The notes under the pieces were generated by a model. The model searched no databases. It saw nothing but the letters and a program-made list of their open reading frames with translations, and was not told where the DNA came from. Below are positions 51,153-59,848 of a DNA stretch of 64,000 nt, one piece after another (position 1 is the first letter of the stretch; each line of letters begins with the position of its first letter). Source of the stretch: Conexibacter sp. CPCC 206217 (GTDB taxonomy: Bacteria > Actinomycetota > Thermoleophilia > Solirubrobacterales > Solirubrobacteraceae); assembly GCF_030646165.1 (NCBI RefSeq), contig NZ_JAUTDO010000003.1, forward strand, positions 558,001 through 622,000. The letters are read 5' to 3'. The position numbers and the translations under genes were made by a program.

Positions 51153-52625
<1,473 letters not shown>

Positions 52626-52634
52626 CGGGCGCTT

Positions 52635-52667
52635 GAGCGGACCGGGGCGCGGGCGGCGGGTCCGCTC
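52635..52667 (+). terminator. hairpin terminator after the malic enzyme gene
   Basis: GAGCGGACC pairs perfectly with GGTCCGCTC (9 bp) around a 15-nt GC-rich loop, starting 9 bp after the stop codon. Confidence 0.55.
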
Positions 52668-52690
52668 GCGCCGTCGCCGAGTGATGTCCA

Positions 52691-52745
52691 CACGAGTGGG
52701 CCAGAATCGAACTTGGGCCTCGCCTTGCTAACGAGGCGCTGCGCG
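52691..52745 (-). other. degenerate tRNA-like 3' fragment at the island edge
   Basis: Read on the minus strand, an anticodon-arm-like stem (CGCCT/AGGCG around TTAGCAA) is followed by AAGTTCGATTCT, which fits the T-loop consensus GTTCRANYC, but the T-stem is only partly paired and no acceptor stem or CCA follows. It overlaps the end of hsdM. Probably a relic of the tRNA used as integration site; not called as a functional tRNA. Confidence 0.3.
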
Positions 52746-54161
52746 CGCCAAGTGCTCCAATGCCTTCTCGAGATCTGCTGCGATCTGTGCCGAGAGTTCC
52801 TCGACGCGTGCCAATCCCGCGATCTTCGGCTCGGCCTCGCTCACGTCCCAGGCGAGATCCAGGCGGACATCGTCGGAGGCCAGCAAATCGGCGTGCGCAA
52901 ACCGACGCCAACGCAATGTCTCGGCTCGACCCACGCGACGGGGTGTGCCGTACTGGGTCACGAAGTCGTGGAGATCGTCCGCGCGCAACGGGCGCTTTTT
53001 CAACGAGAAGTGGTTCCCGGAACGCAGGTCGTAGACCCACAGCGCTCCCTCGCGCACTCTCCGCTGTTCAAGGAAAAGAACGTTGGCATTGATGCCGGAA
53101 GCGTAGAACAGGCCCGCTGGCACGCGAAGAAGCGTGTGGACATCAAAACTCTCGAGCAGCCGCCGCCGGATCGTGACTGCCGCACCACTCTCGTAGAGCA
53201 CGTTGTCGGGCACAACGATCGCCGCACGACCCCCTTCACCCAGGCACGCCGCGATGTGCTGCACGAAGTTGAGCTGCTTGTTCGCCGTTCTCACCCAGAA
53301 GTCGGGACGGACGATGGTGAGCGCGTCCGCGGCGCCCGAGCCGTTGGTCGCAGCATATGTCACGCTGCCCTTCACGCCGAACGGAGGGTTCGAGAGGACG
53401 ACGTCGACCTGCTCAGCTGGCGGGACTGCCAGGCTGTCGGCGCAGACGATCGGCAGCTCGTCGTCCGCGTCACCTGCGATGTCGTGAAGAAAGAGGTTCA
53501 TCGCCGCAAGCCGAGCGACCTCCTGTACGAGCTCGACGCCGCGGATTGCCTTCGTACGCAGGTGTTTGCGCTTTCTTGGCGACAGCCTCGGATGTGCACG
53601 CAGGATGTGCTCGTGAGCTGCGAGCAGGAACCCGCCTGTCCCGCACGCAGGGTCGAGGATGACCTCTCCAGGGACCGGATCGACGCACTCGACCACGGCA
53701 TCAATCAGAGGCCGGGGGGTAAAATACTGGCCAGCCCCGCTCTTGGTATCCCGCGCGTTCTTCTCGAGCAGACCCTCGTACGCATCGCCCTTCAGATCGG
53801 CGGAGAGTCCCAGCCATTCGGTCTCGCCGATAAGGTCGACGACGAGCAACCGCAGCTTCGCTGGATCGGAGATCTTGTTGCGCGCATTGCGGAAGATCAG
53901 ACCAAGCGTTCCTCCCTCATTCCCGAGAGCGGCCAGCGACTCCCCGTAGGTGCGGTGCATCGACTCCGCATCGAGCGACGCAAACGATCTCCAGGCAAAG
54001 CGAGCGGGCAGGATCTCGTCGCCGCGCTCGTCGGCAAGCTTTAGGAACAGGAGATACGTGAGCTGCTCGACGTAGTCCGGATACGAGAGACCGTCGTCAC
54101 GCAGGACGTTGCAGTACTGCCAGAGCCTGCGGACGAGCTCGTGGGCTGTGGGAGTGCTCAT
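52728..54161 (-). CDS. hsdM: type I restriction-modification N6-adenine methyltransferase HsdM
   Basis: 477 residues. N-terminal HsdM helical domain (LVRRLWQYCNVLRDDGLSYPDYVEQLTYLLFL, in parts), the linker GAGQYFTPRPLIDAVVE, SAM motif I DPACGTGGF at 170-178 and catalytic motif IV NPPF at 258-261. It should methylate adenine within the sequence selected by HsdS. Start ATG 54161 overlaps the HNH gene stop (ATGA). GC and codon use are visibly lower than in flanking genes. Unusually it is the last gene of the operon and separated from hsdS by two non-hsd genes; no hsdR follows. Confidence 0.93.
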   Translation of the reverse strand: MSTPTAHELVRRLWQYCNVLRDDGLSYPDYVEQLTYLLFLKLADERGDEILPARFAWRSFASLDAESMHRTYGESLAALGNEGGTLGLIFRNARNKISDPAKLRLLVVDLIGETEWLGLSADLKGDAYEGLLEKNARDTKSGAGQYFTPRPLIDAVVECVDPVPGEVILDPACGTGGFLLAAHEHILRAHPRLSPRKRKHLRTKAIRGVELVQEVARLAAMNLFLHDIAGDADDELPIVCADSLAVPPAEQVDVVLSNPPFGVKGSVTYAATNGSGAADALTIVRPDFWVRTANKQLNFVQHIAACLGEGGRAAIVVPDNVLYESGAAVTIRRRLLESFDVHTLLRVPAGLFYASGINANVLFLEQRRVREGALWVYDLRSGNHFSLKKRPLRADDLHDFVTQYGTPRRVGRAETLRWRRFAHADLLASDDVRLDLAWDVSEAEPKIAGLARVEELSAQIAADLEKALEHLARAAPR

Positions 54162-55021
54162 GTCGAAATCTCGGGGAGGTAGAAGAGGACCACGCGTTCG
54201 ATCCACGTACGATCACGGAAGCGTCGGATGTATGCGGCGGCCGCGCGTGAATAGGGCTGGTCGACGCCAGCGAGTCGGATCAGCTCTCTGATCACCGTCT
54301 TGAGTGTCTCGCCCGCCGCAGCCTCGCCCTGCAGCTTAGCCTTCTCCGCCCTATCGCCGGTCAAGACATGTCCGTAGATCACGGCATACAGGTCGCGCCG
54401 ATCGTCGACGAACGCCGGCCAGTCGAGGTGCAGAAACTCGCGGCTCGCCTCTACTCGTCGGATCGCCATGTCCGACCTCGCGTAGGCAGGAGCGATGGCG
54501 ACGCGACCGTCAATGTCAAAGGTCAGGTGGGGCGGATCCTCGGGATCGGTGGGATCGAGCAACGCCGGCTCCTCGCAGCAGAAGGAGTCAGGCGAGCACC
54601 AGCGGTGTGCCTCATCGAGCAGCGGGAAGTGATCGCCCTTGCCCAGAACCGTGCCAGTGTCCGGGTTGCTGCGCCGGCGATTGGCGCGATGGCAGCTAAG
54701 CCGCAGATTTTCCCAGTTGAATGCCTCCCACCAATAGCCGTCATGGTCTGGCGCCTCAGCGACGCTACGCTGCGGACGGTAGTGGTCGATGTCGTCGTCG
54801 GTGCCCGGATTCTTGGACTCGGTGTACCAGCACTTGGCACCATAGGTCCGTTCGAACAGCGCCCGGAAATCAGCCCATGCGGCGCGTTTAGTCCGCATGA
54901 GTTCCCGGCGGCTGGCCGCGTCAGGGGCCGCACGCAGCTCGCCGCGAACCGCCTCCGCGGTCTCGATCAACATCTGTGCTTGAGCGTCTCTCAGCACGAG
55001 GTCGAGGTCGATGAACTTCAT
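54158..55021 (-). CDS. HNH endonuclease, PtuB-like (Septu-type)
   Basis: 287 residues. An HNH module lies at residues ~60-125: GAKCWYTESKNPGTDDDIDH, with the DIDHYRP His (H80), NWENL (N102) and LSCHRANRRR (C110/N114). This is the arrangement of TIGR02646/PtuB nucleases, but each CxxC zinc pair keeps only one cysteine (C64 and C110). The C-terminal ~120 residues are helical (IRRVEASREFLHLDWPAF). It follows an SMC-type ATPase with an ATGA overlap, exactly the ptuA-ptuB order of Septu. Probable DNA- or RNA-cleaving effector. Confidence 0.82.
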   Translation of the reverse strand: MKFIDLDLVLRDAQAQMLIETAEAVRGELRAAPDAASRRELMRTKRAAWADFRALFERTYGAKCWYTESKNPGTDDDIDHYRPQRSVAEAPDHDGYWWEAFNWENLRLSCHRANRRRSNPDTGTVLGKGDHFPLLDEAHRWCSPDSFCCEEPALLDPTDPEDPPHLTFDIDGRVAIAPAYARSDMAIRRVEASREFLHLDWPAFVDDRRDLYAVIYGHVLTGDRAEKAKLQGEAAAGETLKTVIRELIRLAGVDQPYSRAAAAYIRRFRDRTWIERVVLFYLPEIST

Positions 55022-56655
55022 AACGCGGGCGGCTCAAGGGCGAACTCGCGAGCGATCTCCTCAGCCACCACATCGGCGAGCTCTTCGCGACGACGGATGT
55101 CCTCAAAGCTCACCTGCGAGGTCTCTGTCTCCACAGGACCGCCCGCAGCGGCGAATCGTGGCATAAACTGCTCCATGAACAGCTGGTAAAGCGGATCGCG
55201 ATCCTGCTTCCAGAAGGCCCGCGTGTTCAGTCGGTCGGTCACCGCGCGCAGCTCGTTTCGCTCCTCCTCTGTCAACGAGTCCTTGAGCGCCAGCGATCGT
55301 TGGCGCTCAATATCACGCAGTGTCGCCCGATCGAGCCCGCCGGACGGGAGGCGGAAGAGATCGCTCGCGAGGATCGCCTGGATCCCCATCCCTCGCGGAT
55401 CGTTCAGGGGTTCTTCGACAACGGCGGTGCCCTCCCCTGAGCGGCGGAAGATCCGTACCTGCGGGCGCGTGAGCTGAGCAAATACGAGCGGGTCGTGAGT
55501 GGTCAGAAGGATGTGGCAGCTATCGCGATCGACCATGAAACGGTCGAGGAAGTCAAGATATTGCGTGCTCCAGGCAGGGTTAAGATGCGTATCGGGCTCG
55601 TCGAGCAGGAAGAGCGCTTCACTACGAGCCGTGAACTTGAGCAGGCCGAGTACGAGCAGGAGCTGCTGCTCACCCTCCGACAGATCGCGGTACGTGACCT
55701 CGCCGCCGCCGGCAGCCGGTGTCATACGAACGCGCGTACGAACTTCACCGAGCAGCTTCGAAAGGTGGGTACTCTCGAGCGCCGTGAAGAATGCGTAAGG
55801 TCCGTCGTAGTGATGGTAGACGCGCTCGAGCGCGGCAGCATCACGGAGGAAGAGGTAGAGGCTCTCGACGGCCGGGTTCTTCGCAAGGTCAACCGCGATC
55901 CGTCGCGACATGCGGGACGGCATCAATGCGGCGTCGTATACGCGGTCGAGAAAGGTCTGGACTTCGCCGACCGCCTCCCAGAAGCGGGAATCACCGTCCC
56001 TGCGTGCTCCGCCCCAGGGAGGTCTTTTCAGCGCGAACAGCACGCTGTCGAGCCCATCGATCTGAAGCTTCTCCCGCAGGAACGCACGCTCGCCGCCGTC
56101 GTCATCGTCGGAGTTCATGAAGAACGCGAGCAGTGCGAATTGCCCGTGCAGCGTTTCTGCATAGAAGAGCCGTCGCAGGCTATTCGGATCGGCCGCAGGC
56201 CGCCGCATTTCGGGAGCGGTGATGATGTGGTCGTAGTACCGTTCGCGATGGCGCTCGAAGAACGCCGCGAGCCGGTCGGTTGGACCTGAATAGTACCCGA
56301 ACACGAACGCGGGTCGATAGAGCGGCCCGTTCGCGTCCTCCCTGGCGAACTCCTTGCGCGACAGTCGGCGGTAGTCTCCGGCGCCCTTTGCGCGCGCGTG
56401 CACTCTCGGATACGCCTCCGCGGACGCCTCAACCTTGATGTCGTGGTCACGACAACGGTACGACAAGCGGTAGTCGAACGGTGCCGGTCTACCGAGATCG
56501 AGCTGACGGAAGATCAGCGTGAGGGCCTCGAGCAGGTTCGACTTCCCCGCGCCGTTCTCACCAACAATGACCGTGTACGGGGAGCGCTCGTCGAAGTCAA
56601 TCTGAAGATCGCGGAGATTCTTGAACTCGCCGATGTAGAGCCTGTCAAGGCGCAT
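55018..56655 (-). CDS. SMC/RecF-type ATPase, PtuA-like
   Basis: 545 residues. Starts MRLDRLYIGEFKNLRDLQID, the classic RecF/OLD/PtuA lead-in, with Walker A GENGAGKS (32-39), an insert of ~280 residues, ABC signature LSEGE (325-329), Walker B LDEPD (351-355) and H-loop TTHDP (His387). In Septu, PtuA binds ATP and gates the HNH partner PtuB. The extra C-terminal ~150 residues end EREFALEPP-like and probably dock the partner. ATG 56655 lies inside the end of hsdS (11-nt overlap), so it is coupled. No TOPRIM domain is visible, which argues against an OLD nuclease. Confidence 0.85.
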   Translation of the reverse strand: MRLDRLYIGEFKNLRDLQIDFDERSPYTVIVGENGAGKSNLLEALTLIFRQLDLGRPAPFDYRLSYRCRDHDIKVEASAEAYPRVHARAKGAGDYRRLSRKEFAREDANGPLYRPAFVFGYYSGPTDRLAAFFERHRERYYDHIITAPEMRRPAADPNSLRRLFYAETLHGQFALLAFFMNSDDDDGGERAFLREKLQIDGLDSVLFALKRPPWGGARRDGDSRFWEAVGEVQTFLDRVYDAALMPSRMSRRIAVDLAKNPAVESLYLFLRDAAALERVYHHYDGPYAFFTALESTHLSKLLGEVRTRVRMTPAAGGGEVTYRDLSEGEQQLLLVLGLLKFTARSEALFLLDEPDTHLNPAWSTQYLDFLDRFMVDRDSCHILLTTHDPLVFAQLTRPQVRIFRRSGEGTAVVEEPLNDPRGMGIQAILASDLFRLPSGGLDRATLRDIERQRSLALKDSLTEEERNELRAVTDRLNTRAFWKQDRDPLYQLFMEQFMPRFAAAGGPVETETSQVSFEDIRRREELADVVAEEIAREFALEPPAL

Positions 56656-56887
56656 CCGGGACCGCCCCCAGGGTCTGGTTCTCCTCGCGCTCGCCCACAG
56701 CCTCAACCGACACTCCGAGTTCGTTGCGCAGGGCGAGATAGAAGCGCTCGATCTCTCCGACGTCGTTCAAGTCGAAGCCGGCCGACCGACACAGCTCCGG
56801 GATGCGCATTGGGCCTGATCGACGCAGTGCCGCAGCGAGCTCCGGCTCGCCCAGCCGTCGCGGCTCCGAGTCCGGTTGCTTGGCCAT
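56645..56887 (-). CDS. possible internal in-frame 80-residue protein within hsdS
   Basis: ATG 56887 in the hsdS frame is preceded by AGGAGG with a 5-nt spacer, the best ribosome binding site in the island. The product (MAKQPDSEPRRLG start, helical PELAAALRRSG and IERFYLALRNEL segments) looks like an independent small helical domain. It may be made separately in excess over HsdS, or mark an old fusion of a small gene to hsdS. Unrecognised family. Confidence 0.45.
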   Translation of the reverse strand: MAKQPDSEPRRLGEPELAAALRRSGPMRIPELCRSAGFDLNDVGEIERFYLALRNELGVSVEAVGEREENQTLGAVPDAP

Positions 56888-58261
56888 GTTGCCCTCCTCC
56901 ACGGCTCGATTATCAATAGCGCGGCGGTCCAGCGGCGGCGGCCCGCAGCGCTTCAACAGGTCCTCGGCATGCTCGTCACCCTCATTTTGGGGAACGAGCG
57001 CACCCGACACGGCGGCAGCCAGGACCTCTTTCTCAACCTGCGCGATCCGATCGAGCGAGCGGACGAGCATCTCGCGACGCACGCGTGACTCGTCGAGAAA
57101 CCGACGGGCTTCGTTGGCGATTGCCCGCTGCTCATCGAGCGGTGCCACCGGGAACGGCATCTCCACGAAACGTGTGCGAGAGAGATGCGCGATGTTTGTC
57201 GACCCTCGGGCGATGCGCCTGAACTCGCCAGATCGCAGATAGTGCAGGAAGACGATGAGTGCGAACTCCGGGTCGACTTCCGGGATGGCGCGAAAGCGCA
57301 CCAGCGTGTTCTGAAAGCACACGCCAGGCAGTTCGCCGCGATACATGGCGGGCCGGCCGACGAGTTCGAGACTCTGGCCCTCGTTCAGCAGGATATCGCC
57401 GGGCTCGAGGGCGTAGATCTCGGCCTCCTCGGGTGTGAAATTCATCTCCTTGACGTCGCTCAAATCGATTCGATCCTCGAGCACATTCGCCACACGCAGA
57501 TACGGCCGCATGTTGGGACCACTGTGACTCGCCGGAGAGCGCTGGCGTCCAAGGCGAACCTCTCCGGCGTCTCGCACAGAGGTGAGCCGCCAGCCCGCAG
57601 GGAGGCCGGACGGCGCAATGTCCGCGGAAACAATCCGTCCCGCGACCGCGGCCGACAGCACCTCCGAATCCTGCTCGTGCGTCCGCGCGAGCGCCGTCTC
57701 GAGCGAGTCGGCCGCGGCCCGCAACTCGTCACCGCGACGCGTGGCCTCAGCGACGATTCGCCGCTGCTCGGCGAGAGGCGGCAGCGGGAACGGGAGCTGC
57801 TCGAGGCGGGCCCCGCCCAAGTGCTGAATCCCGATGCCGCGCGCGGCATCGGCAAACAAGCCCGACGCCATATAGTGGCGAAAGACGAGAAGCACGTATT
57901 CTGGATCAGCCGCGTGGGGCCGGACGCGGATGACCGTATTCTGAAAGCAGCACAGAGGCAGGTCTCCGCGCCAGATCGCAGGCCGCCCGACCTGGCTCGC
58001 GCTCCCGGAAGCCTCAGTCAGCAGGACATCCCCGTCGATGAGCGCATACACCGCCCGCTCATCCGGCGTGAAATCCATCTCCAAGACGTCGCTCAGATCA
58101 ACGCCCGCTGGTGTGATATTCCCGGCCCGCACGTATGGGGTGGAGAATCGTCCGCTGTGTTGCTCAGGCGACCGCTGACGCCCGAGACGTACTCGCCCGA
58201 CGTTTGCGACTGTGGTCTGCACCCAGCCAGACGGAAGCTGAGGGTGGGTCGGATCGGTCAT
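56645..58261 (-). CDS. hsdS: type I restriction-modification specificity subunit HsdS with C-terminal extension
   Basis: 538 residues. Two target recognition domains (~residues 1-190 and ~200-415) separated by coiled-coil spacers (ADSLETALARTHEQ; ALVRSLDRIAQVEKEVLAAAV, first letters approximate). The TRDs are near-duplicates: both contain VRLGRQRSP, a PY-x-R-x-(A/G)N pattern, DLSDV-x-EM-x-FTP and FQNT. After the usual HsdS end (GALVPQNEGDE) ~110 residues are added, the last 80 behind an internal ribosome binding site. First gene of the four-gene unit. Start ATG 58261; ATG 58270 is equally possible. No Shine-Dalgarno seen. Confidence 0.88.
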   Translation of the reverse strand: MTDPTHPQLPSGWVQTTVANVGRVRLGRQRSPEQHSGRFSTPYVRAGNITPAGVDLSDVLEMDFTPDERAVYALIDGDVLLTEASGSASQVGRPAIWRGDLPLCCFQNTVIRVRPHAADPEYVLLVFRHYMASGLFADAARGIGIQHLGGARLEQLPFPLPPLAEQRRIVAEATRRGDELRAAADSLETALARTHEQDSEVLSAAVAGRIVSADIAPSGLPAGWRLTSVRDAGEVRLGRQRSPASHSGPNMRPYLRVANVLEDRIDLSDVKEMNFTPEEAEIYALEPGDILLNEGQSLELVGRPAMYRGELPGVCFQNTLVRFRAIPEVDPEFALIVFLHYLRSGEFRRIARGSTNIAHLSRTRFVEMPFPVAPLDEQRAIANEARRFLDESRVRREMLVRSLDRIAQVEKEVLAAAVSGALVPQNEGDEHAEDLLKRCGPPPLDRRAIDNRAVEEGNMAKQPDSEPRRLGEPELAAALRRSGPMRIPELCRSAGFDLNDVGEIERFYLALRNELGVSVEAVGEREENQTLGAVPDAP

Positions 58262-58936
58262 CGGCGGCATCGAAGCAAATTTCGGGTTGGCAGTAGATCT
58301 TCGACGTGCGGTCTTGCGCCGTGGCGGCTGCGAGCAACCCCGCCATCCAACGCCTGACCTCTTGCCCTGCACACGCTGGCGCAGCGGCCGACTGCCCGCG
58401 TGACCTTGCAACCGTTCCGTGCCACGAGACGGTACCAGGGCTTGCGAGCTCTCCTTGCCGCGCTCGACATGGAGTGATCCGCCGTAGCGACCAGAGCATC
58501 GACATCAGTGTTCGACCGTGGCTTCCGCTGCACCGCTCAAGGTTCTCATTTCCGCCGCCACAAGGGGCAACGCGAACGCAACGTCTTAGCCGCAGCGCGG
58601 CACATTTCGTCAGGAGATCTCCTGCGAGTTCCCGTCGTGGCCAGTCCGGGACGCGCAATCTCCGGGAGGTTGCGCGCGAACGCTCGCGTCTCTGCACAGT
58701 GTCCGGCGTCACGACGCTCGTACCTGAGAGCGATCATGCACGTGCTATCCGGTCGCGCTCGCCGAGTCGGTCCACAAGCACTACTCGTCTCACACTCGTT
58801 TCGAGCGATACGCGCTTCACGGGACTGACCAAAGATCTGGGGCACAACACAACGGGTGGGAGCGACGAGCGTTGAACCCCCGACCCCGCCCGGGCGTAGC
58901 CTCCCTGACGGCTCAACGACGGCGGAAGGCGGCACG
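58262..58936. other. 675-bp noncoding edge of the island
   Basis: No convincing gene on either strand: frames here are short, lack ribosome binding sites and use codons unlike either the island or the backbone. It must hold the hsdS promoter. Seen: a perfect 14-bp palindrome CAGGAGATCTCCTG at 58611-58624, and near 58860-58890, minus strand, a T-loop-like GGGGGTTCAA stretch reminiscent of a tRNA 3' half without a paired stem. GC is lower than in the backbone, like the operon. Confidence 0.5.
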
Positions 58937-59848
58937 ATGCGGGTGACGGTGACGGGAGCGACCGGGTTGATCGGCACGAAGCTGGTGGCCGCGCTGAGCG
59001 GGCGCGGCGACCAGGTCACGGTCCTCTCGCGCAATCCCGGCGCCGCGCGCGAGAAGCTCGGTCACGACATCGAGGCGGTCGCGTGGGATCCCTCCGCCGG
59101 GCCCGCGCCCGTGGAGGCGATGAGCGGGCGTGACGGCGTCGTGCACCTCGCCGGCGAGCCGGTCGCGCAGCGTTGGAGCGACGAGGTGAAGGCGCGCATC
59201 CGCGAGAGCCGCTCGGTCGGGACGCGCAACCTCGTCGCGAGCCTCGGCGCCGCCGAGCCGCGCCCGCGCGTGCTCGTGTCCGCCTCCGCGGTCGGCTACT
59301 ACGGCCCGCACGGCGAGGAGCAGGTCGACGAGTCGACGCCGCCCGGCAGCGACTTCCTGGCCGGCGTCTGCGTCGCGTGGGAGCACGAGGCGCTCGCGGC
59401 CGAGGACCTCGGCGTGCGCGTCGCGCGCGTGCGCACGGGCGTCGTGCTCGATCCCGACGGCGGCGCGCTGGCGAAGATGCTGACGCCGTTCAAGCTCGGC
59501 GCGGGCGGGCCGGTCGCCGGCGGGCGCCAGTACATGCCGTGGATCCACGCCGACGACCTCGTCGGGATCTACCTCGCCGCGCTCGACGGCGACGACCGCT
59601 GGGCCGGCGCGCTCAACGGCAGCGCCCCCACCCCGGTCACCAACGCGGAGTTCTCGAAGGCGCTCGGCCACGCGCTGCACCGCCCCGCGGTCGCGCCGAT
59701 CCCGCGGCTGGCGCTGAAGCTGCTCTACGGCGAGATGGAGCAGATCGTCACGACGGGCCAGCGCGCGGTGCCGAAACGGCCGCTGGAGCTGGGCTACGCG
59801 TACAAGCACCCCCAGCTGGACGAGGCGCTGAGAGCGGCGCTGAGCTGA
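58937..59848 (+). CDS. TIGR01777-type SDR epimerase-like protein
   Basis: 303 residues. Extended short-chain dehydrogenase fold: MRVTVTGATGLIGTKLVAAL nucleotide loop, VVHLAGEPVAQRWSDEVKARIRESR (the LAG and RW motifs of this subfamily), ASAVGYYG (active-site YxxxK is degenerate, as usual in TIGR01777), MPWIHADDLV and a C-terminal DUF1731-like segment (FSKALGHALHRP, ELGYAYKHP). Related to cell-division inhibitor SulA-named proteins of cyanobacteria, but enzymatic role is unknown. Start ATG 58937 has a GGAAGG site. Confidence 0.85.
   Translation: MRVTVTGATGLIGTKLVAALSGRGDQVTVLSRNPGAAREKLGHDIEAVAWDPSAGPAPVEAMSGRDGVVHLAGEPVAQRWSDEVKARIRESRSVGTRNLVASLGAAEPRPRVLVSASAVGYYGPHGEEQVDESTPPGSDFLAGVCVAWEHEALAAEDLGVRVARVRTGVVLDPDGGALAKMLTPFKLGAGGPVAGGRQYMPWIHADDLVGIYLAALDGDDRWAGALNGSAPTPVTNAEFSKALGHALHRPAVAPIPRLALKLLYGEMEQIVTTGQRAVPKRPLELGYAYKHPQLDEALRAALS

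What the first reader, a model, noticed from the sequence alone, without database searches (positions are those of the whole stretch)
52728..58261. HsdS/HsdM wrapped around a Septu-like ATPase-HNH pair, with no HsdR
Seen: four minus-strand genes overlapping by 4-11 nt in the order hsdS, SMC/ABC-type ATPase, HNH nuclease, hsdM. Known: type I systems need HsdR for cleavage; Septu consists of PtuA (ATPase) and PtuB (HNH). Inference: here the PtuA/PtuB-like pair replaces HsdR, so HsdS/HsdM marks self-DNA and the pair attacks unmarked DNA or senses loss of methylation. The interleaving (methylase last) argues against two adjacent independent systems. It would be a hybrid type I/Septu system; I do not know it as a named class.
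Basis: partly seen in the sequence, partly recalled or inferred. Interest (0 to 1): 0.85.

Follow-up and report, generated by a model that had tools for sequence, protein, structure and literature searches.

The report
Septu effector wired into DNA methylase
A four-gene bacterial defence module joins a DNA-marking methylase and its recognition subunit to a Septu-type ATPase and nuclease, without the usual cutting enzyme, suggesting that a known phage-defence effector can be plugged into a bacterium's self/non-self DNA marking system.

Summary
In detail: hsdS, ptuA, ptuB, hsdM on the minus strand (58261-52728), overlapping by 11, 4 and 4 nt, motifs intact, no hsdR in the locus. They form one ~6.3 kb insertion, absent from 5 of 5 same-genus genomes whose site could be read. 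In searches blind to hsd, every close PtuA relative with enough flank lay in a type I operon, directly behind hsdS; 6 of 6 distant PtuA-PtuB pairs examined had no hsd genes. HsdS of the close loci ends in an extra winged-helix domain that moves with ptuAB between hsd backbones; 17 of 17 unlinked HsdS lack it. 'Replaces HsdR' is too strong: hsdR is optional, present in some relatives, absent in others (about six changes on the PtuA tree). Five of 11 searched genomes with an R-less locus show no HsdR; this strain has a separate hsdR-hsdS-hsdM operon of the same HsdM subfamily, so help in trans stays possible. Best reading: a Septu effector docked on an HsdMS sensor, comparable to PrrC in type I loci and PtuAB in retron Ec78. 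Docking, trigger and target are inferred. Parts are known; I found no name for the coupled system. New variant of a known kind.

The parts
56645..58261 (-). hsdS, specificity subunit with two homologous halves
   Evidence: PF01420 7e-10; PADLOC Specificity_I 6e-97
56648..56860 (-). extra C-terminal winged-helix domain of HsdS (last ~70 residues), proposed docking site for PtuA
   Evidence: present in PtuAB-linked HsdS of the close clade, no match in 17 of 17 unlinked HsdS; AF2 H-H-H-E-E, pLDDT 77
55018..56655 (-). ptuA-like ABC/AAA ATPase; Walker A 56536-56562, signature 55663-55683, Walker B 55582-55614
   Evidence: PADLOC PtuA 9e-168; NCBIfam TIGR04435 2e-34, below its cut-off
54158..55021 (-). 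ptuB-like HNH nuclease; DIDHYRP 54773-54793, N..N segment 54680-54709
   Evidence: PADLOC PtuB 7e-64; AF2 pLDDT 90, nine best PDB matches all from PtuA-PtuB complexes
52728..54161 (-). hsdM, adenine methyltransferase subunit, motifs intact
   Evidence: PF02384 2e-63, HsdM_N 3e-8
52626..58936 (.). approximate extent of the insertion between the malic-enzyme gene (ends 52625) and the next gene; 58262-58936 holds no recognised gene
   Evidence: flanks contiguous in 5 same-genus genomes; GC3 0.75-0.76 inside, 0.94-0.97 in two neighbours; four ORFs of 106-189 aa there have no Pfam match

Best explanation
A Septu effector (PtuA ATPase + PtuB HNH) coupled to a type I HsdMS methylase that serves as sensor. 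HsdMS marks host DNA at its site. PtuA docks on the complex, probably through the extra winged-helix domain at the end of HsdS, and is held inactive. When HsdMS meets unmethylated sites on incoming DNA, or is blocked by a phage anti-restriction protein, PtuA changes its ATP state and unleashes PtuB, which cuts a nucleic acid (tRNA or DNA) and stops the infection. HsdR is not needed; where present it is a second effector. Shown here: gene content, single insertion, clade-wide linkage, optional hsdR, an HsdS domain that goes with ptuAB across hsd backbones, intact motifs. Inferred: docking, inhibition, trigger, target.
For: Linkage: hsdM and hsdS lie with ptuA in 10 of 10 loci with enough flank in the P0003 genome scan (the 11th, L011, is a 4.5 kb fragment); 5 of 5 plasmid records; the first ten of 28 viral-contig loci, nine distinct, six of the ten also with ptuB; and 2 of 2, 6 of 6 and 3 of 3 genome hits among 399, 395 and 398 genomes, which include the window and two loci already counted. 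The other 18 viral-contig loci, weak ABC-ATPase matches, have no hsd and no ptuB hit. Distant PtuA-PtuB pairs: 0 of 6 examined have hsd genes. Empty site in 5 of 5 readable genomes. No HsdR hit in 5 of 11 genomes with an R-less locus. HsdS domain: leave-one-out match in 20 of 22 linked, 0 of 17 unlinked; it occurs on several HsdM backbones whose ptuAB-free members in the tree with an HsdS (L005, L132, L134) lack it. PtuB fold resembles PtuB. Papers seen in passages: PrrC170 is HsdR-HsdS-PrrC-HsdM; PtuAB is the toxin of retron-Eco7 (PMC11555353).
Against: No contact of PtuA with HsdS or HsdM was modelled or measured. PtuA distances hardly follow HsdM distances in the clade (rho 0.16, 86 of 999 permutations as high) while PtuA-PtuB do (0.68), so the pair has moved between backbones. 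The domain could move with ptuA simply because the two are adjacent. It is absent beside more distant PtuA (0 of 11) although these too sit with hsdM and hsdS. The own genome has an HsdR whose operon shares the HsdM subfamily. Published PtuAB targets differ: tRNA-Tyr in two systems, nicked phage DNA in one, and retron-Eco4 likely not tRNA.
Confidence: 0.55

Rival explanations
1. Guard only: PtuAB does not read methylation. It watches HsdMS, or the whole type I enzyme, and fires when a phage anti-restriction protein disables it, as PrrC does.
For: Lies behind hsdS as PrrC does in PrrC170 (PMC11555353 passage; PrrC described in PMC12707154 passage); hsdR-bearing versions exist; the own genome has an HsdR of a related operon.
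Against: In R-less genomes without HsdR hit (5 of 11) there is no type I restriction to guard.
Confidence: 0.25
2. Cassette without coupling: PtuAB is an ordinary Septu that hitch-hikes behind hsdS for expression and transfer.
For: PtuAB changes HsdM backbones; the unit is a foreign insertion; distant pairs stand alone.
Against: No exception to the linkage in the close clade; always behind hsdS; a dedicated HsdS domain present with it and not seen without it.
Confidence: 0.13
3. In this strain HsdMS is served in trans by the HsdR of the C23 operon, so the locus is a type I system with a PtuAB add-on.
For: C23 HsdM is in the same HsdM group (100/99) and L018, L026 and L028 carry hsdR in the operon itself.
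Against: C23 HsdR has its own S and M; HsdM identity is 46% against 61-64% for L009, L010, L021; other R-less genomes have no HsdR hit.
Confidence: 0.07
4. Decayed type I system: hsdR lost, the rest a relic or an epigenetic methylase.
For: hsdR in several relatives; one relative has an interrupted ptuA (L091).
Against: Four intact genes; the R-less S-A-B-M order occurs in Actinomycetota, Pseudomonadota and Bacteroidota.
Confidence: 0.05

Closest known systems
Septu type I (PtuA-PtuB)
   Same: Both proteins match PADLOC PtuA/PtuB profiles over almost their full length; PtuB fold resembles PtuB
   Different: Embedded in an hsd operon with an extra HsdS domain; the six distant pairs examined have no hsd genes
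Retron Ec78 / type I-A retron (RT + PtuAB; PADLOC Septu type II)
   Same: PtuAB as effector under an added sensor (PMC11555353 and PMC8565338, passages)
   Different: The added part is HsdMS; no reverse transcriptase recognised in the insertion
PrrC with type I R-M (PrrC170: R-S-PrrC-M)
   Same: ATPase effector behind hsdS inside a type I operon (PMC11555353 passage)
   Different: Two-protein PtuA-PtuB with HNH nuclease; hsdR often missing
Type I restriction-modification
   Same: HsdM and HsdS with their motifs
   Different: No HsdR in the locus; the assembly's only HsdR match belongs to the C23 operon
MADS (methylation-associated defence system)
   Same: HsdM-, HsdS- and ATPase-like parts with weak profile matches
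   Different: Scores far below the MADS cut-offs; the full list of mad genes is recalled and was not searched for

Membership tests
Septu | PtuA ATPase and PtuB HNH, adjacent | tested here: met
   PADLOC 9e-168 and 7e-64; ORFs overlap by 4 nt
Septu | Stand-alone two-gene system | tested here: not met
   Part of a four-gene insertion with hsdS and hsdM
Septu | Anti-phage activity | not testable with these tools
   no experiment
Type I restriction-modification | HsdM and HsdS | tested here: met
Type I restriction-modification | HsdR in the locus | tested here: not met
   HsdR profiles match the own assembly only on C23; no further recognised gene in the insertion
Type I restriction-modification | HsdR of another operon used in trans | not testable with these tools
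   C23 HsdM is in the same HsdM group
Retron type I-A | Reverse transcriptase with ptuAB | tested here: not met
   Only the four genes are recognised; four remaining ORFs upstream have no Pfam match
MADS | NCBIfam MAD2, MAD3, MAD5 above cut-off | tested here: not met
   117 of 720, 43 of 420 and 41 of 400 bits
NCBIfam TIGR04435 restriction system-associated AAA ATPase | score above cut-off of 300 bits | tested here: not met
   119 bits; all 12 members of A1 match it at 1e-10 or better
PrrC-type guard | Activated by inhibition of the type I enzyme | not testable with these tools
   no experiment

The most novel reading that the evidence does not exclude
A third wiring of the Septu effector, beside stand-alone Septu and retron I-A: HsdMS is the sensor, and the HsdS winged helix tethers the SMC-like ATPase PtuA much as a kleisin winged helix caps an SMC head. 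The moving cassette is [HsdS C-terminal domain]-ptuA-ptuB, which turns many HsdMS backbones into HsdR-independent restriction or suicide systems that respond to unmethylated DNA.
Probability: 0.4. Interest if true: 0.82.

Novelty: new variant of a known kind. Interest (0 to 1): 0.62.

Why it matters
If right, PtuAB is a general effector that evolution plugs onto different sensors, and some 'orphan' HsdMS methylases without HsdR are active defence systems with another effector. Annotation by parts would probably list a Septu plus an incomplete type I system and miss the link (my inference; no system caller was run). It also offers a testable docking element, the last ~70 residues of HsdS.

Tried and rejected
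Rejected: two adjacent independent systems (one insertion, recurrent interleaved order); plain replacement of HsdR (hsdR co-occurs in relatives); MADS (below cut-offs). Not rejected: help in trans from the C23 HsdR.

Led nowhere: no tRNA gene in the window; repeat search within each end region of the insertion found no end repeats, and the two ends were not compared with each other. Pfam on the HsdS domain gave only weak mixed matches, HARE-HTH among them. Foldseek on it gave nothing below E 0.001; the best matches are mostly winged-helix folds, among them the ScpA winged helix bound to an SMC head at rank 9, E 0.19. Promoter scan: 1 site, 0.8 expected. Domain search in 296 genomes centred on G404 found only the L018 locus; how many HsdS those genomes hold, and whether G1082 and G940 (which carry the domain) were among them, was not checked, so its sensitivity is unknown.

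Literature: ten searches; in the titles and abstract starts listed I saw none on Septu coupled to hsd genes. Krishnan et al. 2020 on ABC ATPases, which may describe it, is not held; prior description cannot be excluded.

Rows dropped: of 20 stretches, L136 and L142 are copies of ptuA-linked loci L015 and L019, and L125 and L143 had no HsdS match; 16 remain, plus L005. L016 (partial HsdM) was left out of the distance test; L011, L027 (identical to L026 over the stretch compared), L032, L033, L035 and L091 out of the PtuA tree.
Full report
WHAT IS THERE. Four minus-strand genes overlap by 11, 4 and 4 nt: hsdS 58261-56645, ptuA 56655-55018, ptuB 55021-54158, hsdM 54161-52728. Profiles identify all four: Methylase_S 7e-10; PADLOC PtuA 9e-168; PADLOC PtuB 7e-64; N6_Mtase 2e-63 with HsdM_N 3e-8. 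Catalytic motifs are intact. An AlphaFold2 model of PtuB (pLDDT 90) has as its nine best PDB matches chains of PtuA-PtuB complexes of retron Ec78, a retron I-A and E. coli Septu; four are below E 0.001 (best 2e-4), and TM-scores are 0.43-0.49 on the query. PtuB is thus a diverged relative.

ONE UNIT. In 5 of the 6 other same-genus genomes held (the sixth, 77% complete, gave no full match) the malic-enzyme gene that ends at 52625 is followed within about 100 bases by the counterpart of 58873-58937, and the 19.9 kb stretches hold no hsd or ptu match. The insertion is about 6.2-6.3 kb. Besides the four genes it holds about 670 bases upstream of hsdS with ORFs of up to 189 aa; four tested there have no Pfam match. 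GC3 of the four genes is 0.75-0.76, against 0.94 and 0.97 in two neighbours. The unit is thus foreign and carries no hsdR.

LINKAGE. Searches used PtuA or PtuB only. Genome contigs with PtuB: 11 loci, 10 with enough flank, and 10 of 10 carry hsdM and hsdS beside ptuA. Plasmids with PtuA at 1e-20: 5 of 5 records. Viral contigs with a PtuA profile: 28 loci; L026-L035 all have hsdM and hsdS (L026 and L027 are alike; ptuB is found in L026-L031 only), and the other 18, weak ABC-ATPase matches, have neither hsd nor ptuB. Genome samples: 1 of 396 (own only), 2 of 399, 6 of 395, 3 of 398; the last two include the genome they were centred on. The eight new loci L084-L091 all carry hsdM and hsdS. Control: of 32 further plasmid records with a distant PtuB match I examined 6, and 6 of 6 are ptuA-ptuB pairs with no hsd gene within 6 kb. 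The link is a property of this clade and its nearer kin, not of Septu at large.

ARCHITECTURES. S-A-B-M without R: window, L009, L010, L016, L019, L021, L022, L029. In L016 the contig ends inside hsdM and in L009 154 bases after it, so a following hsdR cannot be excluded in these two; L029 has 1.5 kb upstream. R-S-A-B-M: L018 (two more genes between ptuB and hsdM), L026/L027, L028. M-S-A-B without R: L017, L023, L024, L030, L084, L085, L086, L090, L091 (ptuA interrupted). With hsdR and M-S-A-B: L025, L031, L087 and the more distant L012-L015. Distant cases: L032-L035, L088, L089. On a PtuA tree of 29 rows hsdR presence needs 6 changes, at least 4 forced by starred branches; the window groups with L021, L010 and L009 (100/100), all S-A-B-M and R-less. 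The labels of L034 and L089 rest on short flanks. hsdR is optional; HsdM, HsdS, PtuA and PtuB are constant in the close clade.

HSDR ELSEWHERE. The own assembly (contamination 6.56%) has a complete R-S-M operon at the start of contig C23. Its HsdM is 46% identical to the window's, against 61-64% for L009, L010 and L021, but no less than HsdM of other S-A-B-M loci (L029 46%, L019 42%, L022 40%). In an HsdM tree of 32 rows it lies in one group with the S-A-B-M and R-S-A-B-M rows (11 rows, 100/99) and beside five S-A-B-M rows with the window (91/89, not firm). So the window's layout may descend from an R-S-M operon, and service by the C23 HsdR cannot be excluded. Of 11 genomes with an R-less locus searched with an HsdR profile, 5 have no match at E 1e-20 (G397 Amycolatopsis, G738, G1082, G1211, G1479) and 6 have one (G000, G396 weak, G402, G403, G405, G940). 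In G738 a ResIII-helicase protein of 838 aa lies 4 kb from the locus, a weak match only (7e-8). Four of four plasmids with an R-less locus have no HsdR on the record; their chromosomes were not searched. Draft genomes may miss genes.

THE HSDS DOMAIN. HsdS of the close clade is about 504-665 aa and ends in some 70 extra residues with a shared pattern. A profile from 22 of them finds each left-out row at E of 1.4e-6 or better (1000 sequences assumed) in 20 of 22; L025 (0.03) and L086 (0.01) are doubtful. It gives no match below E 1 in 17 of 17 HsdS not linked to ptuA (16 from the same genomes and records, plus C23) and 11 of 11 HsdS beside more distant PtuA, L087 included. Set against the HsdM tree, the domain occurs on several backbones when ptuAB is present, while L005, L132 and L134, which share those backbones without ptuAB, lack it. 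It therefore moves with ptuAB, perhaps as part of one cassette. The window's domain is modelled as H-H-H-E-E, a winged helix (75 aa, pLDDT 77); Foldseek gave no match below E 0.001 but mostly winged-helix folds, with the ScpA winged helix on an SMC head at rank 9, E 0.19. That likeness is only a lead.

AGAINST TIGHT COUPLING. In 20 loci PtuA and PtuB distances agree (rho 0.68, 0 of 999), PtuA and HsdS weakly (0.25, 8 of 999), PtuA and HsdM hardly (0.16, 86 of 999). PtuAB has been re-paired with different backbones.

HOW IT MAY WORK. From papers seen in passages: PtuAB of retron-Eco7 is toxic and degrades tRNA-Tyr, that of retron-Eco4 likely not, Septu of E. [quoted passage not shown] PrrC fires when its type I enzyme is inhibited (PMC12707154). 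From one section: Septu EcB88 cuts tRNA-Tyr on T6 infection (PMC13096335 section 8). Here PtuAB lies behind hsdS as PrrC does in PrrC170. I infer that HsdMS is the sensor, PtuA docks by the HsdS domain, and PtuB fires on unmethylated DNA or on HsdMS inhibition. Genomes without HsdR favour a direct role over guarding restriction.

NOVELTY. The PADLOC paper's passages name Septu type I and the RT-linked type II (PMC8565338). NCBI's TIGR04435 is called 'restriction system-associated AAA family ATPase'; all 12 PtuA of A1 match it at 1e-10 or better and the window's is below its cut-off, so curators had noticed a link for a related family. In ten literature searches I saw no listed work on the coupled system; Krishnan et al. 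2020 could not be read. I file it as a new variant of a known kind.

Noticed in passing
L005 4395-9875 (own assembly, contig C23): Complete hsdR-hsdS-hsdM operon of the same HsdM group, without ptuAB and without the HsdS C-terminal domain; possible ancestral layout of R-S-A-B-M.
   Followed up: partly
L018 9753-12073: Two further genes (604 and 146 aa) lie between ptuB and hsdM, as if the space behind hsdS collects cargo.
   Followed up: no
L102-L107: In 6 of 6 distant Septu pairs the 690-769 aa PtuA-like protein also carries a PtuB-like stretch, besides a separate ptuB gene.
   Followed up: no
window 56645-58261: The two halves of HsdS are homologous (41% between the window's second half and the first half of L009), hinting at a near-palindromic target; HsdS of L009, L010 and L021 align along its whole length at 43-49%.
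   Followed up: partly
L091 7955-9675: ptuA interrupted (two frames) beside uninterrupted hsdM, hsdS and ptuB.
   Followed up: no
L033, L034, L088, L089: Another layout: 703-774 aa HsdM, HsdS and a distant PtuA-like ATPase, ptuB weak (L089) or not found; possibly a separate system.
   Followed up: no
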